Shown: positions 2,955 to 37,662 of the stretch, piece by piece
Layout: each line of letters opens with the position of its first letter
Numbering within the stretch: the stretch's first letter is position 1
DNA from: Eisenbergiella porci
Lineage (GTDB): Bacteria; Bacillota; Clostridia; Lachnospirales; Lachnospiraceae
Assembly: GCF_009696275.1 (NCBI RefSeq)
Contig: NZ_VUMI01000051.1
Coordinates: 1-38,959 of the forward strand
DNA length: 38,959 nucleotides
Direction of reading: 5' to 3'
The notes under the pieces: generated by a model
Told to the model about the DNA's origin: nothing
Databases searched by the model: none
Seen by the model: only the letters and a program-made list of their open reading frames with translations
Translations under genes and position numbers: made by a program

Positions 2955-3811
2955 TCACGCCCCACATAGCCTTTCTTCAAGAAAGTGTCTTACTCTGCAT
3001 GTTTCCCGCACATCATGGACAAAGCCAAAATACTCCGCCACAAATTCTGCCGGTTCATCAAAATAATCATACATAAGAAAAAGGCACCTGCTGATATCCC
3101 CATAATCCCCGCCGGGAAAGATGTCCTGGAACCGCATCATTTCTTCCTCTGACAGAAAACGCTTCAGATATTTGCAGGAACTGCCGGTGCTGACCTGAAA
3201 ATTATGGTCTATCCCCACCTTCCAGTTCAGCATCTTAAGAAACATGGGCATAGCCAGCACATCGTAGGCATGCTTGGAGTAGTACAGCTCCTTCCGGCAC
3301 ACTCCCTTGGCCACATACAGACACAGCCAGCGGAATTCGTTGCAGGTATTGTAAAACTCCATTTCTCCGGGCGGCTGAAAAAAAAGGCTTCTTCCGACCC
3401 AATCGTCAGCAGGGAAGGAAAATGGTCCTTATTCAACAGGACGATCCGCGGTTCCTTATTTTCAGCCTCCCCTGAAATCAGGCCCACATCCCGCAGGGTA
3501 AGGTCAATCCGGTTCCCGTCAGCAAACTGTATAAGAAAAGCGAAGGGATCACGGCTGCTATAATCATAAGGATGGGAATACCAGTCCGTGGGACACTGAA
3601 CAATCAGGATATCACCCAGTCGGTGAATCCATTCCTTATCCCGGGTAAACTCCCGCACATCAGTAACAAAAAAGGTGATATCAAAGTCAGAATATTCATC
3701 ATGGACAGCATTGGGATTTGCCCGGGAGCCTTCCATGGTTACAGCGCGGATCCGCGCATCTGTGTCGGCAGTTTCAAGAATCATATCCAGCATTTCCTTT
3801 TCAGTGCGCAT
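2955..3811 (-). pseudogene. AadE-type aminoglycoside 6-adenylyltransferase, frameshifted
   Basis: This gene resembles streptomycin (aminoglycoside 6-) adenylyltransferases, which inactivate the drug by transferring AMP. The start at 3811 follows AAGGAGG. The nucleotidyltransferase signature is present: a GSRA motif in the stretch EGSRANPNAVHDEYSDFDIT, with the two metal-binding acidic residues in the SDFDI part. The first frame runs to about 3375, then the family sequence (FYNTCNEFRW...LYVAKGVCRKELYY...) continues in another frame down to 2955. The switch falls in a run of eight T on the coding strand (complement of 3378-3385); adding one base or losing two would restore one reading frame of about 285 codons. 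It is either a real null allele, a sequencing error, or a slippage site. Function is likely lost as sequenced. Confidence 0.75.
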
Positions 3812-3865
3812 ACAAAACCTCCTTATCCCATTTATCCGTGTCATTCGCCGGCAGCATTTTGGACA

Positions 3866-4369: not shown

Positions 4370-4506
4370 GGTATTCCTTCCCTGTTGCCAGGAGTTCCTG
4401 GCGTACCCCAGCCTTCCTTCTGAAGGCTATGAAACTCTGTTTTTTCTTATTTCCTCATTTTACCTGATACCACTTAAAAAATCTATGGATTCCCGCAAAT
4501 CTAATC

Positions 4507-4545
4507 TTGACAAAATTACTCCACTTTACTATAGTTAAACTATAG
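4507..4545 (+). promoter_or_regulatory. Rrf2 gene promoter with overlapping 17-bp palindromic operator
   Basis: TTGACA (4507-4512) and TATAGT (4530-4535) are spaced by exactly 17 bp, a near-consensus sigma-A promoter. Overlapping the -10 is a perfect palindrome with 8-bp arms, CTATAGTT (4529-4536) and AACTATAG (4538-4545), around one central base. Such a site on the -10 fits repression by the Rrf2 protein encoded 21 bases downstream. Confidence 0.75.
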
Positions 4546-4566: not shown

Positions 4567-4980
4567 TTGTTAATCACACGGGAAACGGATTACGCGCTCC
4601 GCATCCTCCGTTCACTTGCCCAGGGCTCCTGCCTGACAGTAGGGGAGCTGGCGGAAAAGGAGATGCTGCCGCTGAAATTTACCTACAAAATTATAAAAAA
4701 GCTGGAAAAAGCAGGAATTATCCGTATTATCCGGGGCGTAAACGGCGGCTGCCAGCTGGAAGCGGACCTGCATGAGGTCAGCCTGTACGATCTGGTCGGC
4801 GCAGTGGAGACGAATGCCCGCCTTGCGGCCTGCATGAATGCGGATTACCAGTGCGAATGGCGTGACAAAAACGGGACGCCCTGCAACGTCCACGCACAGC
4901 TTGCCAGGGTACAGCAGGCAATTGACCGGGAATTCCGATCCCGGAGTCTTTACTGGATATTATTTGGGGAAAAGGAATAA
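4567..4980 (+). CDS. Rrf2-family transcriptional regulator (possible Fe-S or redox sensor)
   Basis: A 137-residue winged-helix regulator starting at TTG, eight bases after AAAGGAGG; no ATG fits. The N-terminus LITRETDYALRILRSLA is the classic Rrf2 opening, followed by the recognition helix region (LPLKFTYKIIKKLEKAGII) and the wing (RGVNGGCQL). Three cysteines in the C-terminal half (in CMNADYQCEW and GTPCNVH) resemble the cluster-binding cysteines of IscR/NsrR/RsrR-type members, which sense Fe-S status, NO or redox state. It is 209 bases upstream of the acyl-CoA dehydrogenase fusion on the same strand, so control of that module is plausible. Its own promoter carries a perfect palindrome. The sensed signal is inferred, not shown. 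Confidence 0.85.
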   Translation: MLITRETDYALRILRSLAQGSCLTVGELAEKEMLPLKFTYKIIKKLEKAGIIRIIRGVNGGCQLEADLHEVSLYDLVGAVETNARLAACMNADYQCEWRDKNGTPCNVHAQLARVQQAIDREFRSRSLYWILFGEKE

Positions 4981-5120
4981 TTTTTTTTTGAATATAAAAG
5001 TGGATAAAAAAAGTCAAGTATTGCCGCTGTAAAAATGGGGAAAAGCACGGCAATCGGAAACATATCTGCCGTACCTTTGGCAGTAAATATATAAAGACAC
5101 TGTGACCTGACAGGCACTTG

Positions 5121-5156
5121 GGAACTGTACAGAATTACATTTATACAGACAGTTCC
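5121..5156 (+). promoter_or_regulatory. Inverted repeat in the leader of the acyl-CoA dehydrogenase fusion
   Basis: GGAACTGT (5121-5128) is repeated inverted as ACAGTTCC (5149-5156) around a 20-base loop, which itself contains a shorter inner repeat (GTACAG and related). It ends 33 bases before the start codon. It could be an operator or an mRNA stem in the leader. It is not the same sequence as the palindrome in front of the Rrf2 gene. Confidence 0.45.
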
Positions 5157-5189
5157 TTGCCACCCAAACATATAAAGGGGGAACTAAGT

Positions 5190-7097
5190 ATGCTTTATCA
5201 AACAACACAGGAGCATGAAGCGTTCAGACAAAAAATGAGGGAGTTCGCGGAAAGCGAAGTAAAACCAATAGCGTTTCTGATGGATCAGAATAATGAATTT
5301 CCAACGGAAGCGGTAAAGAAGCTGGGGGAAATGGGACTGATGGGGATTCCATATCCCAAGGAATACGGCGGCGCCGGGCTGGATGTGCTCAGTTATGCAA
5401 TCGCGGTGGAGGAACTGTCCAGAGTGGACGGCGGGACAGGAGTCATTCTTTCCGCACATGTATCCCTTGGTTCCTGGCCGATTTTCGCCTTCGGCACGGA
5501 GGAACAGAAGCGGAAGTATCTGACGCCTCTGGCAAAGGGGGAAAAAATAGGCGCATTCGGCCTCACCGAACCCAACGCAGGCTCTGATGCGGGCGGAACC
5601 GAGACAACTGCCATACTGAAGGGTGATTATTACCTGCTGAATGGTGGAAAGATATTCATAACAAATGCGCCGAAAGCAGACACGTACGTAGTATTCGCCG
5701 TGACCACTCCGGATATCGGAACCAGAGGAATTTCTGCATTTATCGTAGAAAAAGGCTGGGAAGGCTTTGAATTCGGAGAACATTATGATAAAATGGGTAT
5801 TCGGTCCTCATCCACTGCAGAATTGATATTCAACGATGTAAAGGTTCCAAGGGAAAACCTTCTTGGAAAGGAAGGACAGGGCTTCAAAATCGCCATGGCC
5901 ACGCTGGACGGCGGACGCATCGGAATCGCTTCCCAGGCGCTGGGGATTGCACAGGGTGCATTTGAACATGCGCTGGAATATTCCAAAGAACGCGTACAGT
6001 TCGGAAAGCCCATCTGCCAGCAGCAGATCGTATCCTTTAAGCTGGCGGATATGGCAACCAAGCTGCGCTGCGCCCGTTTCCTTATCTACAGCGCGGCGGA
6101 ACTGAAGGAACACCACGAATCCTATGGCATGGAAGCGGCAATGGCGAAGCAGTATGCTTCCGATATATCCCTGGAGGTGACCAATGACGCCCTGCAGATT
6201 TTCGGAGGAAGCGGCTATCTGAAGGGAATGGAAGTGGAGCGCGCCTACAGGGATGCGAAAATCACTACCATATATGAAGGAACCAATGAAATCCAGCGCG
6301 TTGTCATCGCCTCCCATCTGATCGGAAAGATGCCCCGGGAAGCGGGCGGCCCTGCGAAAATCATGAAGAAACCGGCCCCGGTTACCGGTTACCGCAAAAA
6401 AATGATTTTAAAGGAAGGCAGCGCCCAGGAAAGAGTTGCAGCCCTTGTTGCGGCCCTTGTAAAAGACGGTTATGATTTCAGCGTGGGAATTCCCGCGGAC
6501 ACCCCGATACCGCTGGCAGAAAGAGTGGTTTCCGCCGGAAAAGGCATCGGTTCCAGGGAAAATATGAAGCTTATCGAAGAACTGGCAAAACAGGCAGGCG
6601 CGGCCATCGGCTCCTCCAGGCCGGTAGCTGAAACCCTGAAATACGTGCCCCTGAACCGCTATGTGGGCATGTCCGGCCAGAAATTCACAGGCAACCTCTA
6701 TATTGCCTGCGGCATTTCGGGAGCCGTACAGCACCTGAAAGGCATCCGGGACGCCTCCACCATTGTGGCGATTAACAAGAATGCCAACGCGCCCATTTTC
6801 AAGAACTGCGATTACGGAATCATCGGGGATGTCAATGAGATTTTGCCGCTTCTTTCGGAAGCGCTTAATAATGGAGAAGCCAAGAAGCCGGCACCGCCCA
6901 TGGTTAAAATGAAACGGCCGCTGCCTCCCAAACCGGCGGCAATTGGAAAAACCTATGTGTGCGGCGGCTGCGGCTATGAATACGATCCTGCGGCAGGAGA
7001 TCCGGACTCGGACATCGCTCCGGGCACACTATTAGAAAAGCTGCCCGCTGACTGGGTTTGTCCGGAATGTGCGGAAAGTAAGGATATGTTTATGTAG
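5190..7097 (+). CDS. Acyl-CoA dehydrogenase fused to EtfA FAD domain and rubredoxin
   Basis: A 635-residue three-part flavoprotein. Residues 1-380 are a short-chain (butyryl-type) acyl-CoA dehydrogenase: [13 protein letters not shown], then the catalytic base Glu363 in [10 protein letters not shown]. Residues about 445-560 match the FAD-binding C-terminal domain of electron-transfer flavoprotein alpha ([43 protein letters not shown]); the EtfA N-terminal domain is missing and no etfB is nearby. Residues 586-635 are a rubredoxin with iron ligands Cys591, Cys594, Cys624 and Cys627. Electrons from the dehydrogenase FAD could pass through the ETF-type FAD to the rubredoxin iron, then to the flavodiiron protein encoded 27 bases downstream. 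I chose the ATG at 5190, after GGGGGA, because the dehydrogenase homology begins there. The acyl chain length used is inferred. Confidence 0.92.
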
Positions 7098-7124
7098 GCT
7101 ACGGCCAGAAGGAGGAAATAGAAA

Positions 7125-8339
7125 ATGTATTGTGTCAGAAATGTAACGGAAGATCTATACTGGGTGGGCGCCAATGACCACAGACTTACCCTTTTTGAAA
7201 ATATTCATCCCATTCCCAGAGGCGTTTCCTATAATGCTTATCTGCTTTTGGATGAAAAAACGGTGCTGTTCGATACCGTAGACTGGTCCGCCTGCAGACA
7301 GCTGCTGGAAAACATGGACTATCTGCTTCAGGGAAAAGAGCTGGATTACCTGGTAATCAACCATATGGAACCGGATCACGGCGCATCCATCGAAGAAATC
7401 CTGCTCCGCTACCCCAAAGTAAAAATTATCAGCACCCCCAAGGCCTTCATGCTGATGCGTCAGTTCGGCTTTGACATTGATAATTATGATCAGATTGAAG
7501 TAAACGAGGGCGATACCCAGAGCTTTGGCAGACATACGGTAACCTTTGTCAATGCCCCCATGGTGCATTGGCCCGAAGCCATGGTCACCTTCGATGTGAC
7601 AACCGGAGTCCTCTTCTCCGCAGATGCTTTCGGCTCCTTCGGCGCCCTGGACGGCAAGCTGTTCAATGATGAAGTGGACTTTGAAAGAGACTGGATCGAC
7701 GACGCAAGACGCTACTACACCAATATTGTAGGCAAATACGGAGCTCCCGTCCAGGCCCTCCTCAAGAAGGCTTCCGGGCTGGATATCAAAATGATCTGCC
7801 CCCTTCACGGTCCCGTATGGCGTTCCAATGTAGCATATTTTATCGAAAAATATGACCGCTGGAGCCGCTACGAGCCGGAAGAAAAAGGCGTAATGATCGC
7901 CTACGCTTCCATGTACGGCAATACAGAAGCCGCCGCACAGGCGCTGGCAGCGAAACTCTGTGAAAAAGGCATGACAAATGTAGTTGTTTACGATGTTTCC
8001 AACACCCACGTATCCCAGCTCATTTCCGAGGCCTTCCGCTTAAGCCACATCGTGCTGGCAAGCGTAACCTACAACCTGGGAATTTATCCTGTAATGCATA
8101 ATTTCCTTTCCGATATGAAAGCCCTCAACCTCCAGAAGCGTACCTTCGCCCTCATCGAAAACGGATCCTGGGCCTGCAAATCCGGAGACCTGATGCAGAA
8201 ATTCATCGAAGAGGAAATGAAAAATATGACAGTCATCAATGAAAGACTGTCCCTTGCTTCCACCCTCCACCCCGATAAAGCTGTAGAACTCGATACCCTC
8301 GCAGACGGAATCATCGAATCCATGCAGCCCGAGGCATAA
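7125..8339 (+). CDS. FprA-type flavodiiron protein (O2/NO reductase)
   Basis: A 404-residue soluble class A flavodiiron protein. Residues 1-250 are the metallo-beta-lactamase-like domain with the di-iron ligands His80, Glu82, Asp84 and His85 (HMEPDH), the later His in MVHWPEAM, Asp in SADAFG and His in CPLHGPVW, so the full ligand set is present. Residues about 255-404 are a flavodoxin domain with the FMN phosphate loop YASMYGNTEA. Clostridial members reduce O2 to water, and some NO to N2O, taking electrons from rubredoxin. The start follows AGGAGG and the gene is probably co-transcribed with the upstream fusion, which supplies exactly such a rubredoxin domain. A terminator hairpin follows. 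Confidence 0.94.
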   Translation: MYCVRNVTEDLYWVGANDHRLTLFENIHPIPRGVSYNAYLLLDEKTVLFDTVDWSACRQLLENMDYLLQGKELDYLVINHMEPDHGASIEEILLRYPKVKIISTPKAFMLMRQFGFDIDNYDQIEVNEGDTQSFGRHTVTFVNAPMVHWPEAMVTFDVTTGVLFSADAFGSFGALDGKLFNDEVDFERDWIDDARRYYTNIVGKYGAPVQALLKKASGLDIKMICPLHGPVWRSNVAYFIEKYDRWSRYEPEEKGVMIAYASMYGNTEAAAQALAAKLCEKGMTNVVVYDVSNTHVSQLISEAFRLSHIVLASVTYNLGIYPVMHNFLSDMKALNLQKRTFALIENGSWACKSGDLMQKFIEEEMKNMTVINERLSLASTLHPDKAVELDTLADGIIESMQPEA

Positions 8340-8617: not shown

Positions 8618-11398
8618 ATGAGTAAGATATTAATTGGCGTTCCCCTTGAGGGATTTGCACAGCTTTGCCGCGAGGCGGCGGCCCAGGGAGCGGTCCTGCT
8701 GAAAAATGAGGACCATACACTGCCGGTTACCGATGGTGAATACGTATCCGTTTTCGGCAGAATCCAGAAGGACTATTACCGGAGCGGCACAGGATCAGGA
8801 GGCGCGGTAAATGTACCCTATGCCACGAACCTGCTGGACAGCCTGCGCCAGTGTGACAATTTGAAGATAAATGAGGAACTGGCGGGCATTTATGAACAAT
8901 GGATCCAGGAAAATCCTTTTGATGACGGAGGCGGAGGCTGGACAGCGGAGCCCTGGAGTCAGAAGGAAATGCCGGTAACAGAGGAGCTTGTAAAAAAAGC
9001 TGCCGGAAAATCCGACAAAGCGCTGGTAGTCCTGGGCAGGACAGCTGGCGAAGGCAAGGACTATGAGGATACGGAAGGCGGCTACCGCCTGGACGCCGCG
9101 GAAAAAGAACTGCTCGCCATGGTGACCAGACATTTTAAAAAGACCGCCGTCATTCTCAACGTAACCTGTGTCATTGACATGAGTTTTCTGGAGGAAGCCT
9201 GTGAAAATCCGGTCACAGCCATTCTTTATGTATGGCACGGCGGACAGGAGGGCGGGAATGCAGCCGCCGATGTGATTTCCGGCAGAGTTACCCCCAGCGG
9301 AAAGCTGGCGGATACCATTTGTTACAGCCTGGCGGATTACCCTTCCACAGCCAATCACGGCGGAGAGCTTGAAAACATTTACCAGGAAGATATTTACGTA
9401 GGCTACCGCTATTTTGAAACCTTTGCGCCGGACCGTGTCCGCTATCCTTTCGGCTTCGGGCTTTCTTATACCGATTTTTCCGTGATGCTGCAGGAAGCGC
9501 ATGTAAAAAACGGAAATATGACCGTGAAAGCCAATGTAAAAAATACGGGCAGCCGTTATTCCGGCCGGGAAGTGGTACAGGTTTACTTCAGCGCTCCCCA
9601 GGGAAAGCTGGGACGTCCCGCCAGGGAACTGGCGGCATTTGCCAAGACGGGACTGCTGGCTCCGGGAGAAGAGGAGGAGCTGCTTCTTACATTCCCCATC
9701 GCGTCCATGGCGGCCTATGATGACGGCGGTTATACCGGAAACAAAGCCTGCTATGTGCTGGAAGAAGGCTGCTACCGGATTTATGTCGGCACCAGCGTCC
9801 GCGACGTGGCGCCGGTTATGGTAGACGGCGCGGAAGGCTATGAGGTTACCGGACTTACGGTAACACAACGCCTGGAAGAGGCCTGCGCTCCTGAAAAAGA
9901 ATTTATCCGCCTGAAACCGGGAGCATGTCAGGGCGGCATCTATGAAAAAACAGGACAAAAAGTACCTACGGCAACCGTTTCCCTGGCAGAACGCATCCGT
10001 GCCAATATGCCTCCCACGCTTACCAGAACCGGCAGCCGGGGAATTCAGCTTAAGGACGTACTGGATAAAGCGGAGTCCATGGAAGCCTTCATTGCCCAGC
10101 TGACACCCGAGGAGCTGGCAACACTGGTACGCGGGGAAGGAATGTGCAGCCCCAGGGTAACGCCCGGCGTGGCCTCCTGCTTCGGCGGCCTGAGCAATTC
10201 TCTGCGTGAAACCTATGGAATCCCGATTGCCGCCGCTGCGGACGGACCCTCCGGTATCCGTATGGATGTGGGCGCGCAGGCAACTCAGGTGCCTATCGGA
10301 ACACTGCTTGCCTGTACCTTTGACACAAAGCTGGTGGAAGAACTCTATGTAATGGAAGGGAAAGAGCTTCTGCGCAACGAGATCGACACCCTCCTGGGGC
10401 CTGGCATCAATATTCACCGCAATCCGCTCAACGGCCGGAACTTTGAGTATTTTTCAGAGGATCCCCTTCTTACGGGAAAAATGGCGGCAGCCAATATCCG
10501 CGGCATTATGCGCGGCGGTTCCAACGCCACCATGAAGCACTACGCCTGCAACAGCCAGGAAAAGGAACGGAGCAAGGTAAATGCTGTGGTTTCAGAAAGA
10601 GCGCTGCGTGAAATTTATCTGAAGGCCTTTGAAATTGCTGTCAGGGAAGGCGGAGCCAATTCTGTGATGACCTCATACAATCCGGTTAACGGTCACTGGA
10701 GCGCCTCCAATTACGATCTGAACACCACAATCCTCCGTAAAGAATGGGGCTTTGAGGGGATTGTAATGACCGACTGGTGGTCAACGATGAACGACTGCAT
10801 CCTCGGAGGAGCGGAAAGCAGGGAAAATACGGCTGCCATGGTGCGTTCCCAGAACGATCTGTACATGGTTGTGGACAATCTGGCTGCGGAAAATAATCCC
10901 ATGGGTGACAACACCCTGAAAGCCCTGAGAAAAGGCGAATTGACGCTGGGTGAGCTTCAGCGCTGCGCGGCAAATATCTGCCGCTTCCTGATGAAGACTC
11001 CCGTCATGGAAAGAGCCCTGCTTCCTGAGGAAGAACCCGAACTGATTCCGGCATGTACAGAAAATGACGAAGCTTCCGGAAAAGCCGCGCTTCTGAAGGA
11101 TTCCTGCAGGCTTGCCACCCCCATGAACGAGCATGTCCTGTTTGCCGTGGAAGAATCCGGCGTATATCACGTACGGATACAGATGAAGACGGATAATCCG
11201 GATTTCCGTGCACAGTCTGCCTGCAATGCCAGCCTGAACGGCGTCCGTTTCATGACGCCTCAGCTCAACGGCACGAACGGTGTTTCTATTGTCCGGGAAA
11301 TGGGAGACGTAAGCCTGGAAAAAGGATATTATGATCTGTGCCTGACACCTACCAAGATGCCGGGAATTACTGTAGAGTGGTTTGAGTTCTACAAATAA
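8618..11398 (+). CDS. Glycoside hydrolase family 3 with permuted domain order
   Basis: A 926-residue intracellular enzyme (no signal peptide) of the beta-glucosidase/xylosidase family. The order is reversed against typical GH3: the GH3 C-terminal alpha/beta sandwich comes first (about 15-250, QGAVLLKNEDHTLP through PSGKLADTI), then a fibronectin-III-like domain (about 300-400, REVVQVYFSAP and RELAAFAKT), and only then the catalytic barrel (about 475-790). The barrel holds the substrate-binding MKHYACNSQE and the nucleophile Asp719 in VMTDWW. Residues about 800-926 look like a beta-rich appendage. The permuted order is known from Ruminococcus albus and Butyrivibrio beta-glucosidases. The substrate cannot be decided from sequence; oligosaccharides or glycosides taken up by the cell are likely. 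It appears to be its own transcription unit with a following terminator. Confidence 0.92.
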   Translation: MSKILIGVPLEGFAQLCREAAAQGAVLLKNEDHTLPVTDGEYVSVFGRIQKDYYRSGTGSGGAVNVPYATNLLDSLRQCDNLKINEELAGIYEQWIQENPFDDGGGGWTAEPWSQKEMPVTEELVKKAAGKSDKALVVLGRTAGEGKDYEDTEGGYRLDAAEKELLAMVTRHFKKTAVILNVTCVIDMSFLEEACENPVTAILYVWHGGQEGGNAAADVISGRVTPSGKLADTICYSLADYPSTANHGGELENIYQEDIYVGYRYFETFAPDRVRYPFGFGLSYTDFSVMLQEAHVKNGNMTVKANVKNTGSRYSGREVVQVYFSAPQGKLGRPARELAAFAKTGLLAPGEEEELLLTFPIASMAAYDDGGYTGNKACYVLEEGCYRIYVGTSVRDVAPVMVDGAEGYEVTGLTVTQRLEEACAPEKEFIRLKPGACQGGIYEKTGQKVPTATVSLAERIRANMPPTLTRTGSRGIQLKDVLDKAESMEAFIAQLTPEELATLVRGEGMCSPRVTPGVASCFGGLSNSLRETYGIPIAAAADGPSGIRMDVGAQATQVPIGTLLACTFDTKLVEELYVMEGKELLRNEIDTLLGPGINIHRNPLNGRNFEYFSEDPLLTGKMAAANIRGIMRGGSNATMKHYACNSQEKERSKVNAVVSERALREIYLKAFEIAVREGGANSVMTSYNPVNGHWSASNYDLNTTILRKEWGFEGIVMTDWWSTMNDCILGGAESRENTAAMVRSQNDLYMVVDNLAAENNPMGDNTLKALRKGELTLGELQRCAANICRFLMKTPVMERALLPEEEPELIPACTENDEASGKAALLKDSCRLATPMNEHVLFAVEESGVYHVRIQMKTDNPDFRAQSACNASLNGVRFMTPQLNGTNGVSIVREMGDVSLEKGYYDLCLTPTKMPGITVEWFEFYK

Positions 11399-17568: not shown

Positions 17569-20178
17569 ATGAATTTACTAGTTATCGGCGGAGTTGCTGC
17601 CGGAACCAAAGTGGCGGCAAAGGCAAAAAGAGTAATGCCGGATGCGAAAGTTACGATTGTTACCAAAGGAAAGGATATTTCTTATGCAGGCTGTGGTCTG
17701 CCTTATTATGTCGGAGAGCTGATTGAAGGAAAGGATCAGCTTATTGTTAATACGCCGGCAAAATTTTCAGCACTCACAGGCGCGCTTGTACAGACAGAGC
17801 GGGAAGTAACAAGACTGGATGTAAAAGAAAAGAAGGCGGCGGTCCGGAATCTACGTACAGGCGGCGAGGAAATTTATACATATGATGCATGCGTTATTGC
17901 TTCAGGCGCTTCTTCCATAGTGCCTCCGTTTACAGGAGTAAATCTTCCGGGAGTATTTACCATGCGTACACCGGATGATGCAATTGAATCCAGAGAATAT
18001 CTGAAGGCCAATCAGGTAAAAAAGGCAGTGGTTGTAGGCGGCGGATTTATCGGTCTGGAGGTTGCGGAAAACCTTCTCGCGCAGGGAGTAAGCGTGACGG
18101 TAATGGATATGGCACCCCAGATTATGCCGGGTTTTGATCCTGAAATGGCGGATTATGCGGTGCGCCACCTTGCCAAAAAAGGAATCAGGGTGCTTACCTC
18201 CACTAAACTGGAAGGAATCACCGGAACGCTGAAAGCAGAAGGCGTTCAGACCGATAAAGGGCATCTGCCTGCCGATATGGTGATACTTTCCATTGGCATC
18301 CGGCCTAATACCGGATTTTTGCAGGATACCGGAATTGAAATGTTCAAGGGAACGATTCTGGTAGACGAAAAGATGCGCACTAATGTCCCGGATGTATATG
18401 CGGCAGGGGACTGCGCTATGGTGACAAACCGGCTGACCGGCGCAAGGCAGTGGTCTCCTATGGGTTCCTCCGCCAATATGGAGGGACGTACGCTGGCGCT
18501 TGCGTTAAATGGTGAAAAGGTAAGCTATCCCGGGGTTCTGGGAACAGGCGTAGTCAAGCTTCCCGGACTGAACGGCGGACGTACCGGCCTGACGGAGGAA
18601 GCGGCTAAAGCGGCCGGTTATGATGTGGAGACCGTGCTGTCAGTGACAGATGATAAGGCTCACTATTATCCGGATTCCTCATTTTTTGCAGTTAAGCTGA
18701 TTGCGGACAGGAAGAGCCGCAGACTGCTGGGACTTCAGGTATTGGGGCCGGGAGCGGTGGATAAGATGACGGATATCGCTGTCATGGCGATCACCTTTGG
18801 AGGAACGCTGGAGCAGATGACCTCTCTGGATTTGGCCTACGCACCCCCGTTCTCCACAGCTATCCATCCCTTTACGGCGGCGGTACAGATCCTGCTGAAC
18901 AAAATGAATGGTGTTATGGATAGCTTTACCCCTGCCGAATATATGGCCGGTGCGGCGGATGATTACAGGATCATAGATGTAAATCCCGCCGGTCCCACCA
19001 TCCCCGGAGTGACCTATGTGGACCTGACTGCTGTTGATGCTCAGGTGCTTGCCAACCCTCGGGGAGAAATCCCCGGATTAGGAAAAGATGAAAAACTTCT
19101 GCTTGTATGTGCAAAGGGCAAACGTGCCTACCTGCTTCAGAACAGGATGAAGCACTATGGCTATACCAATACCAGGGTGCTGGAAGGCTCATCCTTCTTT
19201 AATGTAATCAGGACAGGAAATGCGGCGGGACGGGTAACGGTTTCTCCGGAAGAAATCACCCGCGTGAAAGCCCTGGGGTGTCTGCATAACAAAGGAACTG
19301 ATAATTTCAATGTGCGTGTGATTACCAGAAATGGTAAAGTTACCGCAGAGGAAAACCGAAGAATTGCAGATGCGGCAGCCAGGTACGGCAGCGGAGATGT
19401 AGTTATGACTACCAGACTTACCATGGAAATTGTCGGAGTGCCTTATGATAAGCTGGATGAGCTTCGGGATTTCCTGGCGGAGGGCGGCCTGGAAACAGGC
19501 GGAACAGGCTCAAAGGTACGTCCGGTAGTATCCTGCAAGGGTACCACCTGCCAGTACGGACAGCTGGATTCCTATGCATTATCTGAGAAAATACATGAAC
19601 GTTTCTACCATGGCTATCATGAGGTAAAGCTGCCCCATAAATTTAAAATTGCTGTCGGAGGATGCCCGAATAATTGTGTAAAACCTGATTTGAACGATTT
19701 TGGTATTGTAGGACAGCGGATTCCCTCTTATAATGTAGATATCTGCCGCGGATGCGGGAAATGCAAGGTGGAGGATATTTGCCCTATGGAAGCGGCCAGA
19801 GTTGTGGACGGCAAGCTGATTATAGACAAAGAAAAATGTAACAACTGTGGACGCTGTGTTGGAAAATGTCCATTCAAGGCAGTGGACGATGGTATCTATG
19901 GTTATAAGGTATATATCGGCGGGCGCTGGGGAAAGAAAACTGCGCATGGCAAGGCATTGTCGAAGGTATTCACAGGTGAGGAAGAGGTTTTGTCCGTATT
20001 GGAAAAGGCAATCCTGCTTTTCAGGGAGCAGGGAAAGACCGGGGAACGCTTTGCGGATACGGTAAACAGAATCGGCTTTGCTGAAGTAGAGGCCCAGCTG
20101 CTGGGAGATGAAATCCTTTCCAGAAAGGATGAAATAATCGGAGCTCAGCTGCATTTAAAGGGCGGAGCTACCTGCTAA
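17569..20178 (+). CDS. CoA-disulfide reductase / rhodanese / siroheme sulfite reductase fusion
   Basis: An 869-residue multi-domain redox enzyme. Residues 1-445 are a CoA-disulfide-reductase-like FAD/NAD(P)H oxidoreductase (LLVIGGVAAGTKVA; redox Cys42 in SYAGCGLPYY; second nucleotide site VVVGGGFIGLEVAENL; AAGDCA). Residues about 455-545 are a rhodanese domain with active Cys514 in VCAKGKRAY. Residues about 560-869 resemble anaerobic sulfite reductase AsrC: siroheme/[4Fe-4S] cysteines Cys656, Cys661 (C-x4-C), Cys699 and Cys703 (C-x3-C), with a two-cluster ferredoxin insert starting at Cys726 and Cys757. It could move electrons from NAD(P)H via FAD to siroheme, reducing sulfite or releasing sulfide from a persulfide carried by the rhodanese. 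The start follows GGGGAG. The siroheme genes downstream support a siroheme cofactor. Substrate is inferred; nitrite is the alternative. Confidence 0.9.
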   Translation: MNLLVIGGVAAGTKVAAKAKRVMPDAKVTIVTKGKDISYAGCGLPYYVGELIEGKDQLIVNTPAKFSALTGALVQTEREVTRLDVKEKKAAVRNLRTGGEEIYTYDACVIASGASSIVPPFTGVNLPGVFTMRTPDDAIESREYLKANQVKKAVVVGGGFIGLEVAENLLAQGVSVTVMDMAPQIMPGFDPEMADYAVRHLAKKGIRVLTSTKLEGITGTLKAEGVQTDKGHLPADMVILSIGIRPNTGFLQDTGIEMFKGTILVDEKMRTNVPDVYAAGDCAMVTNRLTGARQWSPMGSSANMEGRTLALALNGEKVSYPGVLGTGVVKLPGLNGGRTGLTEEAAKAAGYDVETVLSVTDDKAHYYPDSSFFAVKLIADRKSRRLLGLQVLGPGAVDKMTDIAVMAITFGGTLEQMTSLDLAYAPPFSTAIHPFTAAVQILLNKMNGVMDSFTPAEYMAGAADDYRIIDVNPAGPTIPGVTYVDLTAVDAQVLANPRGEIPGLGKDEKLLLVCAKGKRAYLLQNRMKHYGYTNTRVLEGSSFFNVIRTGNAAGRVTVSPEEITRVKALGCLHNKGTDNFNVRVITRNGKVTAEENRRIADAAARYGSGDVVMTTRLTMEIVGVPYDKLDELRDFLAEGGLETGGTGSKVRPVVSCKGTTCQYGQLDSYALSEKIHERFYHGYHEVKLPHKFKIAVGGCPNNCVKPDLNDFGIVGQRIPSYNVDICRGCGKCKVEDICPMEAARVVDGKLIIDKEKCNNCGRCVGKCPFKAVDDGIYGYKVYIGGRWGKKTAHGKALSKVFTGEEEVLSVLEKAILLFREQGKTGERFADTVNRIGFAEVEAQLLGDEILSRKDEIIGAQLHLKGGATC

Positions 20179-34392: not shown

Positions 34393-35064
34393 ATGAAAAT
34401 AGTGATAGTTGGGGCTGGTAGAGGTCTTGGAAGTGTATTATCGAAAATGCTGGCAGAAAGAGGACATACAGTTATAGCAGGACTTCGGGTACCGGATAGA
34501 ACATCAGATAGGGACAATCTTATTTATCTGCCAATGGATGTCACAAAAGAAAGCGAGATTCATGATGCTGCAGAATGGGTAAAGGAACGGTTTGGTGAGA
34601 TTGATGCGGTGGTAGATGTTGCAGGCGTACTATTATCTTCAGATCGTACAGAAACACTCCTTACGGAGAGCTTAGAGGATATTCGGGAACAGATAGAAGT
34701 CAATGCGCTTGGTATTATCACGGTGTTCAGGGAATTTCTTCCTGTAATAAAAACAGACGGAATGTTTATCGGGGTAACTTCCGAAGGGGGTAGTTTTGCA
34801 AATGAAGGAAGCCTGTTCCCGGCTTATGGAATATCAAAAACGACAGCAAATAAAATTGTTCAGACGATGCGTGTTACTGTAGGAGACAGGATCGGTGTAT
34901 ATGCGATACACCCAGGACGAATGAATACAGATATGGGAAGGACAACCGCACAAATTGAACCTGAGGAAGCCGCAATGGGATTTTGTGATATCATTGAAGG
35001 TAACATAAAGATTAAAAAAGATCAATGGTTTGTTGATTATCATGGGAAACCAATGCCACTGTAG
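34393..35064 (+). CDS. Short-chain dehydrogenase/reductase (SDR)
   Basis: A 223-residue SDR. The nucleotide loop reads IVIVGAGRGLGSVL (G-x-x-x-G-x-G type), the structural D-V-A-G replaces the usual N-A-G, and the active site has Ser in VTSEGGS and Y-G-I-S-K as the Y-x-x-x-K motif. I start at ATG 34393, six bases after AGGAGG, rather than ATG 34387, which touches the ribosome site. It is ten bases after the TIM-barrel gene and likely works on the same pathway, oxidising or reducing an alcohol or keto group. Confidence 0.9.
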   Translation: MKIVIVGAGRGLGSVLSKMLAERGHTVIAGLRVPDRTSDRDNLIYLPMDVTKESEIHDAAEWVKERFGEIDAVVDVAGVLLSSDRTETLLTESLEDIREQIEVNALGIITVFREFLPVIKTDGMFIGVTSEGGSFANEGSLFPAYGISKTTANKIVQTMRVTVGDRIGVYAIHPGRMNTDMGRTTAQIEPEEAAMGFCDIIEGNIKIKKDQWFVDYHGKPMPL

Positions 35065-35134
35065 GCATTATGATAGGAGGAGAAGTGTGAAACAAATAGT
35101 TAGTGAATAGCGAAATATAAAAGGGCATAACTAC

Positions 35135-35639
35135 AAAACCATCTTGCGGTGGTCTCAAAAAGAAAATATAGACAGGTGTTTTGCATCGACCATCTGCAAA
35201 AGGTGCTACATCAAATATTTCCCCAGGATGAGCAAGCATATATTCTGTGATAGAACGAGAAGATTTTCCAAGCACATCGCTGAATACGTCGTCCAATTTA
35301 AGGTTTGATACAGTAAGACAATTTAGATCACGATTCTTTTCATCAGTAATCATACAGGTGAGTTTGAAACGGTATCTTACCAAATCTCTTAAATGACGAA
35401 TGTCAGCAGGTGGGATAAAGGAAGGTTTAATCATTTCACACATGGATAAGTCGCAAATCCATTTAGCGTCCTTTCGGTCGGTCTTGTTTCCTTTTTGCGG
35501 TTTTGTATATTTGGGATGAGCAAGAATAACAGAAATATTCGCTTTTTCCAAAACATTAAATACGGGGAACGATACAGGCGTAGATCTATGTTTTGTGGAC
35601 GTCAAGCCCACGGCAGTTGAGAAAAATTTTGAAAGACAA
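35135..35639 (-). pseudogene. IS110-family transposase remnant (copy 1)
   Basis: Starts at TTG 35639 after AGGAGG and opens with GLDVHKT, containing the first Asp of the DEDD RuvC-like site, then hits a TAG. After an internal deletion the family sequence resumes in another frame: PVFNVLEKANISVILAHPKY, KTDRKDAKWICDL with the later catalytic Asp residues, and RHLRDLVRYRFKLTC. The second acidic residue (Glu in the M-E-S-T-G block) and the entire C-terminal transposase_20 domain are gone; the frame runs straight into the terminal motif. Not functional. Confidence 0.8.
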
Positions 35640-36578: not shown

Positions 36579-37662
36579 TTATGCAGTTGCTGACTTAATC
36601 CTATAACCTTGATTTCTTGCTATGATGAGAGCCTGTTCTACCGTGATTTCATGATCAATGGGCGGTAAATCTGATTTTCGGTAAAGTTCCGTATTATAGT
36701 TTTCTCCATTCTTCAACATGTGGTATAATGCAGTCAGAAGCATTCTTGCTACATCAATGATTGCTTTCTTGTGACCGCGATGCTTTTTGAGACGGAGATA
36801 GCGGTTACGAATTTCAGGGTGTTTTTTGCTTTTGACAACAGCGTTGGCGCATTGTACCAAAAGCGGTTTAATATAGCATCCGGCTTTGGAAACCCGGACA
36901 GATTTTTTCTTCCCTGCACTTTCATTGTTGGTCGGCGTTAAGCCAGCCCATGAGCATAAGTGTTTGGCCGAAGGAAAAGCCTCCATATTGGAACCAATTT
37001 CGGAAATGATTCCGATAGCAGTGAAATCACTGCTGATACTAGGAGCGGTTTGAAGAGTGGCAAGTTCCTGCTGATAGGGAGCGGCGAGCGCAAGAATGAG
37101 TTCTTCAAGCTCTGCTTTCCGGGATTCAAGGCTTTCATAATGAGCTTTGATTACCTTAAGTTTCCCCGCCTGTTCCGGAGTGATATAGCCGTCAATGGCA
37201 TCACGGAGTTCAGGAAGCTTCTTTTTGAACCTCTTGTAAACAAGAGGTTCAAGGTCGTCCGAGACAACGTTTCCCAACTGGATATTGGAAAACGTGAGAC
37301 AGTTCTGCAAACGATACTTTTCGCTTGATTGAAAGCAGGTCAGTTTGAAACGGTAGCGCATAAGGTCACGAAGCTGGCGGATGTCAACGGGCGGCATAAA
37401 GCTTCCGGCAACAAGATCATGCTTAAACAGGTCAGCAATCCATTTGGCATCTTTCTTGCCAGTTTTCTTTCCACGGATAGCCTTAACATATTTGGGATGA
37501 GCAATGAATCGAACAATCATTTTCCAAAATGTTGTAAACGGGGCTCAGTATTTACCAGTGGGTGGTAATGCCTTTACTGTTGGTAGAAGCAATGCAGGCG
37601 ACTACAAAAGTCTTGTGGACATCAATGCCACAGCAGATTTTGTACACGATTTTTAAAGCCAT
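36579..37662 (-). pseudogene. IS110-family transposase with internal deletion (copy 2)
   Basis: Begins at ATG 37662 after GAAAGGAG and reads MALKIVYKICCGIDVHKTF, with the first catalytic Asp. The frame stops after about 37 codons. In another frame the family block T-G-K-Y follows with a TGA in place of the usual Trp, then an uninterrupted 313-codon frame (36579-37520) carries KTGKKDAKWIADLFKHDL and the whole C-terminal transposase_20 domain with the catalytic-Ser region (GLTPTNNESAGKKKSVRVSK). Roughly 45 codons including the Glu of the DEDD site have been lost. The remaining open part could still be translated but should not transpose. Confidence 0.85.

What the first reader, a model, noticed from the sequence alone, without database searches (positions are those of the whole stretch)
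4567..8339. Possible acyl-CoA-driven oxygen reductase: ACAD-EtfA-rubredoxin fusion plus flavodiiron protein, behind an Rrf2 sensor
Seen: one polypeptide joins a butyryl-type acyl-CoA dehydrogenase (base Glu363), only the FAD domain of EtfA, and a rubredoxin with four Cys ligands. The next gene is a flavodiiron protein with a complete di-iron ligand set. Known: clostridial flavodiiron proteins accept electrons from rubredoxin and reduce O2 or NO. Inference: electrons flow from the acyl-CoA through both FADs and the rubredoxin to O2, without EtfB, NADH or ferredoxin. That would turn a fermentation intermediate into a scavenger of oxygen. The Rrf2 protein with three cysteines could switch it on by redox or Fe-S state.
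Basis: partly seen in the sequence, partly recalled or inferred. Interest (0 to 1): 0.78.

Follow-up and report, generated by a model that had tools for sequence, protein, structure and literature searches.

The report
Butyryl-CoA-fed oxygen scavenger with regulator
A gut-type anaerobe carries a two-protein enzyme that very probably burns off oxygen with electrons from a butyrate-fermentation intermediate; this enzyme type was described in 2024 and its neighbouring sensor gene in a 2026 preprint, so the locus is a further example, and the part that may be new is the sensor's likely DNA-binding sites.

Summary
In detail: an Rrf2 gene (4567-4980), an acyl-CoA dehydrogenase + EtfA-FAD-domain + rubredoxin fusion (ATG 5190-7097) and a class A flavodiiron protein (7125-8339), one strand, intact. 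Preprint PMC13404960 (July 2026) reports an Fe-S Rrf2 factor beside BOOR, with Eisenbergiella tayi, the window's nearest relative here (93%), among its drawn examples. My tests agree: the flavodiiron gene directly follows the fusion in 81 of 81 testable loci and 19 of 19 class-survey genomes; catalytic and metal residues are invariant but for one truncated row; the genome has bcd-etfBA and rnf clusters. Rrf2 is a clade-restricted add-on (33 of 82; 1 of 19). What I did not find in print is its probable operator, a 19-bp palindrome CTTGAC-N7-GTCAAG, over the rrf2 promoter and again before the fusion gene (21 of 33 Rrf2 loci against 1 of 50 without). New member of a known kind; modest interest.

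The parts
4506..4524 (+). operator copy 1 (CTTGACAAAATTACTCCAC), overlapping the -35 box of the rrf2 promoter
   Evidence: comparison with other Rrf2 loci; 26-bp PWM score 26.3, palindromic PWM 15.9; predicted, not tested
4507..4535 (+). sigma-70-type promoter of rrf2: TTGACA, 17-nt spacer, TATAGT
   Evidence: 11 of 12 consensus positions
4567..4980 (+). rrf2: Fe-S type Rrf2 regulator, 137 aa, TTG start; Asp8 and Cys89, Cys96, Cys106
   Evidence: Pfam PF02082; conservation
4981..4989 (+). T tract a few bases before operator copy 2, shared by relatives; role unknown
5000..5018 (-). operator copy 2 (minus strand CTTGACTTTTTTTATCCAC), between rrf2 and the fusion gene
   Evidence: score 23.5 (26-bp PWM) and 13.5 (palindromic PWM); not used in training
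5190..7097 (+). BCR: butyryl-CoA dehydrogenase + EtfA FAD domain + rubredoxin fusion, 635 aa
5205..6320 (+). acyl-CoA dehydrogenase part, catalytic Glu363
   Evidence: Pfam; Glu363 in 83 of 83 rows
6513..6749 (+). EtfA FAD-binding domain (PF00766); similarity continues to about 6869
   Evidence: Ser476-Arg477 and the checked positions of the GMSGQ and GISGAxQH motifs invariant in 83 rows
6954..7091 (+). rubredoxin domain, four Cys ligands
   Evidence: Cys in 83, 83, 82, 82 of 83 rows, the gap being truncated L045
7125..8339 (+). flavodiiron protein, class A (di-iron lactamase domain + flavodoxin)
   Evidence: ligands invariant in 75 rows; 93.5% identical to the E. tayi copy, 54% and 34% to two other flavodiiron proteins of the same genome

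Best explanation
The fusion (BCR) and the flavodiiron protein form a butyryl-CoA oxygen oxidoreductase. Butyryl-CoA is oxidised to crotonyl-CoA at the dehydrogenase FAD (base Glu363); the tethered EtfA FAD domain carries the electrons to the tethered rubredoxin, which reduces the FMN and then the di-iron site of the flavodiiron protein, where O2 becomes water. Crotonyl-CoA can be reduced again by Bcd-Etf, with Rnf recovering energy, so O2 is removed without spending NADH directly. The Rrf2 protein most likely holds an Fe-S cluster (three Cys plus Asp8) and represses its own gene and the operon by binding two CTTGAC-N7-GTCAAG operators until O2 or NO damages the cluster. Shown by others on the F. 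nucleatum homologue: complex, butyryl-CoA-driven O2 reduction. Shown here by sequence: same architecture, invariant residues, constant pairing, pathway genes, operator that tracks the regulator. Inferred: activity of these very proteins, substrate range, cluster, repression, signal. The confidence is for the BOOR assignment; I would give the operator assignment about 0.7 and the direction (repression, O2 or NO signal) about 0.55.
For: Domain order and residues. Flavodiiron gene next to the fusion in 81 of 81 testable loci and 19 of 19 survey loci (two of the 19 repeat loci already counted). A Fusobacteriaceae homologue, L081, 77% identical. Published biochemistry of the F. nucleatum pair, via review passages. 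thl-crt-hbd-bcd-etfB-etfA operon and an rnfC-D-G-E-A-B cluster in the same genome. A butyryl-CoA:acetate CoA-transferase-like gene directly before the fusion in a relative, L009 (354 bits, below the model's cut-off of 674.8). Operator: palindromic-PWM score of at least 8 between rrf2 and the fusion in 21 of 33 Rrf2 loci, against 1 of 50 loci without Rrf2 and 6 of 882,621 background positions.
Against: Nothing was measured on the window's proteins. The primary paper is not held. Acyl chain length is untested. Operator copy 2 starts 190 nt before the fusion start here, against 36-60 nt in 16 of the 21 relatives that score at least 8, so its action may differ. 12 of 33 Rrf2 loci have no second copy at that threshold, which was picked after seeing the scores (at 5: 22 of 33 against 6 of 50; at 12: 14 of 33 against 0 of 50). 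Loci are related, so the Fisher value is too optimistic. Two loci labelled Roseburia (L046, L048) have no Rrf2 gene directly upstream, although the preprint's example is from Roseburia inulinivorans. Only 5 of 120 family genomes and 20 of 291 class genomes, the window's own counted in both, have the fusion at E <= 1e-150; the strict cut-off may miss broken copies.
Confidence: 0.88

Rival explanations
1. Butyryl-CoA-driven NO reductase: an NsrR-like sensor (three Cys plus Asp8) detects NO and the pair removes NO rather than, or besides, O2.
For: Asp8 and three Cys are conserved; the preprint says Asp8 is an NsrR ligand (section 13); the review says flavodiiron proteins reduce O2 and/or NO.
Against: The F. 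nucleatum complex showed no NO reductase activity (review passages). I tested no residue that would tell O2 from NO selectivity.
Confidence: 0.1
2. The fusion runs the other way in vivo: rubredoxin reduced by an NAD(P)H:rubredoxin reductase feeds electrons through the EtfA FAD domain to reduce crotonyl-CoA, and the flavodiiron protein is a side partner.
For: The review gives the butyryl-CoA couple as -10 mV, so that half may be reversible; two further rubredoxin-like stretches exist in the genome, one in a 61-aa frame, one inside a 255-aa frame. I did not search for a rubredoxin reductase.
Against: The genome has a bcd-etfBA operon for that job; the flavodiiron gene is next door in every testable locus; the homologue was shown to reduce O2.
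Confidence: 0.05
3. The Rrf2 gene is an unrelated neighbour and the conserved motif is just its sigma-70 promoter.
For: Copy 1 contains the -35 TTGACA; Rrf2 is absent directly upstream of the fusion in 49 of 82 loci and 18 of 19 survey loci.
Against: Copy 2, not used in training, lies between rrf2 and the fusion, where by eye no consensus promoter fits it, and it tracks Rrf2 presence over a tree on which that label changes 11 times, at least 6 forced by well-supported branches (quick method). The preprint reports the same neighbourhood link (BCR in 123 of 149 neighbourhoods, FDP in 115).
Confidence: 0.1

Closest known systems
[quoted passage not shown] Bystrom & Wolthers 2024 (paper not held; known through passages of PMC12288474, PMC12630350 and PMC13404960)
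   Same: Same domain order, adjacent to a flavodiiron gene, companions Bcd-Etf and Rnf in the same genome.
   Different: The word Rrf2 does not occur in the review's text; the window has an Rrf2 gene with likely operators. Activity of the window's proteins is untested. FN1423 and FN1424 themselves were not in hand; L081 (uncultured Fusobacteriaceae) stood in.
Rrf2 factor C0FN14 beside BOOR in gut Clostridia (PMC13404960, preprint, 15 July 2026; section 13 read whole, other passages by word search)
   Same: Rrf2 + BCR + FDP, three Cys and Asp8, induction by oxidative or nitrosative stress proposed; an Eisenbergiella tayi neighbourhood is drawn (figure legend).
   Different: A search of its main text found none of 'motif', 'operator', 'binding site', 'promoter', 'upstream'; the operators are the addition here. 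Its supplement was not read. C0FN14 itself was not compared with the window's protein.
NAD(P)H-driven flavodiiron systems of Clostridia (as described in passages of PMC12288474 and PMC12630350)
   Same: A flavodiiron protein reduces O2 to water, often fed through a rubredoxin.
   Different: Electron donor is NAD(P)H, not an acyl-CoA; no dehydrogenase or EtfA domain (recalled).
Bifurcating Bcd-EtfAB (as on contig C100 of the same genome)
   Same: Related dehydrogenase (60% identical) and EtfA FAD domain (43%).
   Different: Separate subunits with EtfB, which the fusion lacks; no rubredoxin. That the C100 enzyme bifurcates is assumed, not tested.

Membership tests
BOOR | ACAD + EtfA FAD domain + rubredoxin in one chain | tested here: met
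BOOR | adjacent class A flavodiiron gene with full di-iron ligand set | tested here: met
BOOR | sequence kinship with the fusobacterial proteins | tested here: met
   77% to L081, an uncultured Fusobacteriaceae fusion; its partial flavodiiron gene 80% over 246 aa; FN1423/FN1424 themselves not compared
BOOR | butyryl-CoA-dependent reduction of O2 to water | not testable with these tools
   biochemistry needed; reported for F. nucleatum
BOOR | alpha4beta4 complex | not testable with these tools
BOOR | Bcd-Etf and Rnf in the same genome (companions named by the review) | tested here: met
Fe-S Rrf2 regulator (NsrR/IscR type) | Rrf2 family match and three cluster cysteines | tested here: met
Fe-S Rrf2 regulator (NsrR/IscR type) | membership of a named equivalog: SUF regulator, RirA, IscR, NsrR or CymR | tested here: not met
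   bits against cut-off: SUF regulator 62.9 of 110.65, RirA 56.7 of 193, IscR 47.7 of 207.55, NsrR 35.5 of 182, CymR 28.9 of 195; only the superfamily model TIGR00738 passes (79.9 of 73.3)
Fe-S Rrf2 regulator (NsrR/IscR type) | bound cluster, operator binding, signal | not testable with these tools
   operators predicted only

The most novel reading that the evidence does not exclude
The Rrf2 gene is a dedicated local switch that repeatedly joins or leaves BOOR operons together with its own operators (CTTGAC-N7-GTCAAG), turning an O2 scavenger into an inducible cassette; copy 2, behind a conserved T tract, would act on elongation or on a second start. In its boldest form (much less likely, about 0.1) the switch senses NO and the Rrf2-bearing clade of BOOR has gained NO reduction, which the fusobacterial enzyme lacks.
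Probability: 0.5. Interest if true: 0.4.

Novelty: new member of a known kind. Interest (0 to 1): 0.3.

Why it matters
It adds a further, regulator-bearing example of an oxygen-removal route that spends a butyrate precursor instead of NADH, and it gives a testable switch: two defined DNA sites that should be bound by a purified Fe-S protein. If right, butyrate output of some gut anaerobes would fall when oxygen leaks in (the review and the preprint both make this point for BOOR), in a way that could be read from the promoter sequence.

Tried and rejected
First operator idea, TATAGTTAAACTATA at 4530-4544: in the nearest relative, E. tayi L010, the second half is different, so rejected. Own-genome operator search with a wrong spacing of 7 instead of 8 bases: discarded and repeated (9 rows at 8 places, two of them the window's sites; reversed-pattern control 1). 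A strong site elsewhere (C100:25087, score 19.1) lies before a small ORF of no visible connection; not followed. The genome's other Rrf2 matches (5 matches with the window's, 4 over the cut-off) have no box of score 8 in the 3.1-3.4 kb held around them (best 6.6). The start-codon finder misplaced some starts; one search failed; one search is the corrected count. One search aligned a 10-base slice by mistake and is meaningless. Two further rubredoxin-like stretches (C102, C116) were fetched but only scanned for the box. The whole-genome surveys used E <= 1e-150 and scored a limited number of candidates per genome.
Full report
Observation. The three genes exist, intact and in line, at 4567-4980, 5190-7097 and 7125-8339. 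In 83 aligned fusions (window plus 82 loci; duplicate L006 and minus-strand L008 left out) Glu363 is invariant and the rubredoxin cysteines are present in 83, 83, 82 and 82 rows, the one gap being truncated L045; in 75 flavodiiron proteins (window plus 74; weaker or partial matches left out) all ligands are invariant; in 34 Rrf2 proteins the three cysteines are invariant and Asp8 is present in all but one masked row. Of 154 solved chains matched by sequence, 60 were shown, and none of these matches the fusion beyond residue 401 in its best stretch, so no solved structure of the whole fusion came to light.

What it is. Literature searches on the parts led to a 2025 review (PMC12288474, passages read). 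It describes in F. [quoted passage not shown] the primary paper is Bystrom & Wolthers 2024, which is not held. The review says that many obligate anaerobes among the Firmicutes carry it. A preprint of 15 July 2026 (PMC13404960; section 13 read whole, passages) found an Fe-S Rrf2 factor beside these pairs in gut Clostridia, draws E. tayi among its examples, and proposes control by oxidative or nitrosative stress. The finding's two ideas are therefore in print.

Own tests of the pair. The flavodiiron gene follows the fusion on the same strand within 300 bp in 81 of the 81 loci with at least 300 bp of downstream DNA; the other three contigs end within 89 bp. In a separate class survey 20 of 291 genomes hold the fusion at E <= 1e-150, the window's among them; in all 19 others the flavodiiron gene is next to it (L146 and L147 repeat earlier loci). 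In the window's family 5 of 120 genomes have it, the window's included, and the one other same-genus genome, G107, has no match at that cut-off, which with the mixed family make-up of the tree suggests gain and loss or transfer; this is inference.

Setting. The same genome has a thl-crt-hbd-bcd-etfB-etfA operon. In one search hbd passes its model; crt, etfB and etfA have best matches below the cut-offs; bcd and etfA are also the matches; thl is named from its sequence. It also has an rnfC-D-G-E-A-B cluster (rnfC passes its model and rnfB; the others are named from sequence and order). So butyryl-CoA and the energy-recovering partners named by the review are likely available. A relative, L009, has a butyryl-CoA:acetate CoA-transferase-like gene directly upstream of the fusion (below the cut-off). 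The window's flavodiiron protein is 72-94% identical to those of four other full-length fusion loci compared and 54% and 34% to the genome's two other strong flavodiiron matches.

Regulator. An Rrf2 gene lies directly upstream of the fusion in 33 of 82 loci tested, but in 1 of 19 class-survey loci, so it is an add-on of some clades. Two loci labelled Roseburia, L046 and L048, lack it there, although the preprint's example comes from Roseburia inulinivorans. On the fusion's tree (quick method) the label needs 11 changes, at least 6 forced by well-supported branches. Of 34 Rrf2 upstream regions (window included), 32 hold CTTGAC or GTTGAC; the two misses have little or no DNA; in 30 of these 32 a second arm follows at fixed distance (L028 and L030 lack it). 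The L045 site is a 19-bp palindrome but for its central base. A matrix from 27 of these sites, made palindromic, was then used on DNA not used for training: between rrf2 and the fusion, 21 of 33 loci score at least 8; of 50 loci without Rrf2, 1 does within 300 bp upstream (L062); background 6 of 882,621 positions; Fisher 2.6e-10, too optimistic because loci are related and the threshold was chosen after seeing the scores; other thresholds give 22 of 33 against 6 of 50 (at 5) and 14 of 33 against 0 of 50 (at 12). In the class-survey loci none of the 18 without Rrf2 reaches 8 within 300 bp (best 7.3 in L146), and the one with Rrf2, L147, has no second copy either. In the window copy 1 sits on the rrf2 promoter (4506-4524) and copy 2 at 5000-5018. 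Copy 2 is preceded by a T-rich stretch shared by most of the 24 sites printed and by eye no consensus promoter fits it; its action is open. Genome-wide, the strict pattern occurs at 8 places, two being these, so the regulon may be this operon alone; divergent sites would be missed by the strict pattern.

Verdict. What I add is the operator prediction; the search 'Rrf2, flavodiiron, operator' (no paper) and the word search of the preprint's main text did not show it in print, which is a limited check.

Noticed in passing
window 2955-3844, minus strand: A streptomycin-adenylyltransferase-like gene (PF04439) split over two frames: one piece matches profile positions 1-152, the other 150-278. Looks like a broken gene; described only.
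   Followed up: no
window 17569-20178: An 869-aa protein joining a CoA-disulfide-reductase-like FAD/NAD domain, a weak rhodanese-like part (below cut-off), and a sulfite/nitrite reductase with 4Fe-4S clusters, directly before what look like hemA and other tetrapyrrole genes (named from their sequences).
   Followed up: partly
window 8618-11398: Family 3 glycoside hydrolase with its C-terminal domain placed before the N-terminal domain.
   Followed up: no
window 4981-5018 and Rrf2-bearing loci among L010-L089: Conserved T-rich stretch a few bases before operator copy 2; role unknown.
   Followed up: partly
L062, L063, L068, upstream of the fusion: Loci without adjacent Rrf2 share a related but different box (ACTAAATTAGTCAAG-like) starting 42-62 nt before the fusion, perhaps for another Rrf2 protein elsewhere in the genome.
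   Followed up: no
L120 7088-7106 (contig C100 of the window's genome): A near-palindromic copy of the motif (CTTGACTATAATTATCAAG, score 19.1) overlapping the ribosome-binding region of a small ORF.
   Followed up: no
window 36579-37520, minus strand: IS110-type transposase; a second fragment that looks similar by eye lies at 35012-35611.
   Followed up: no
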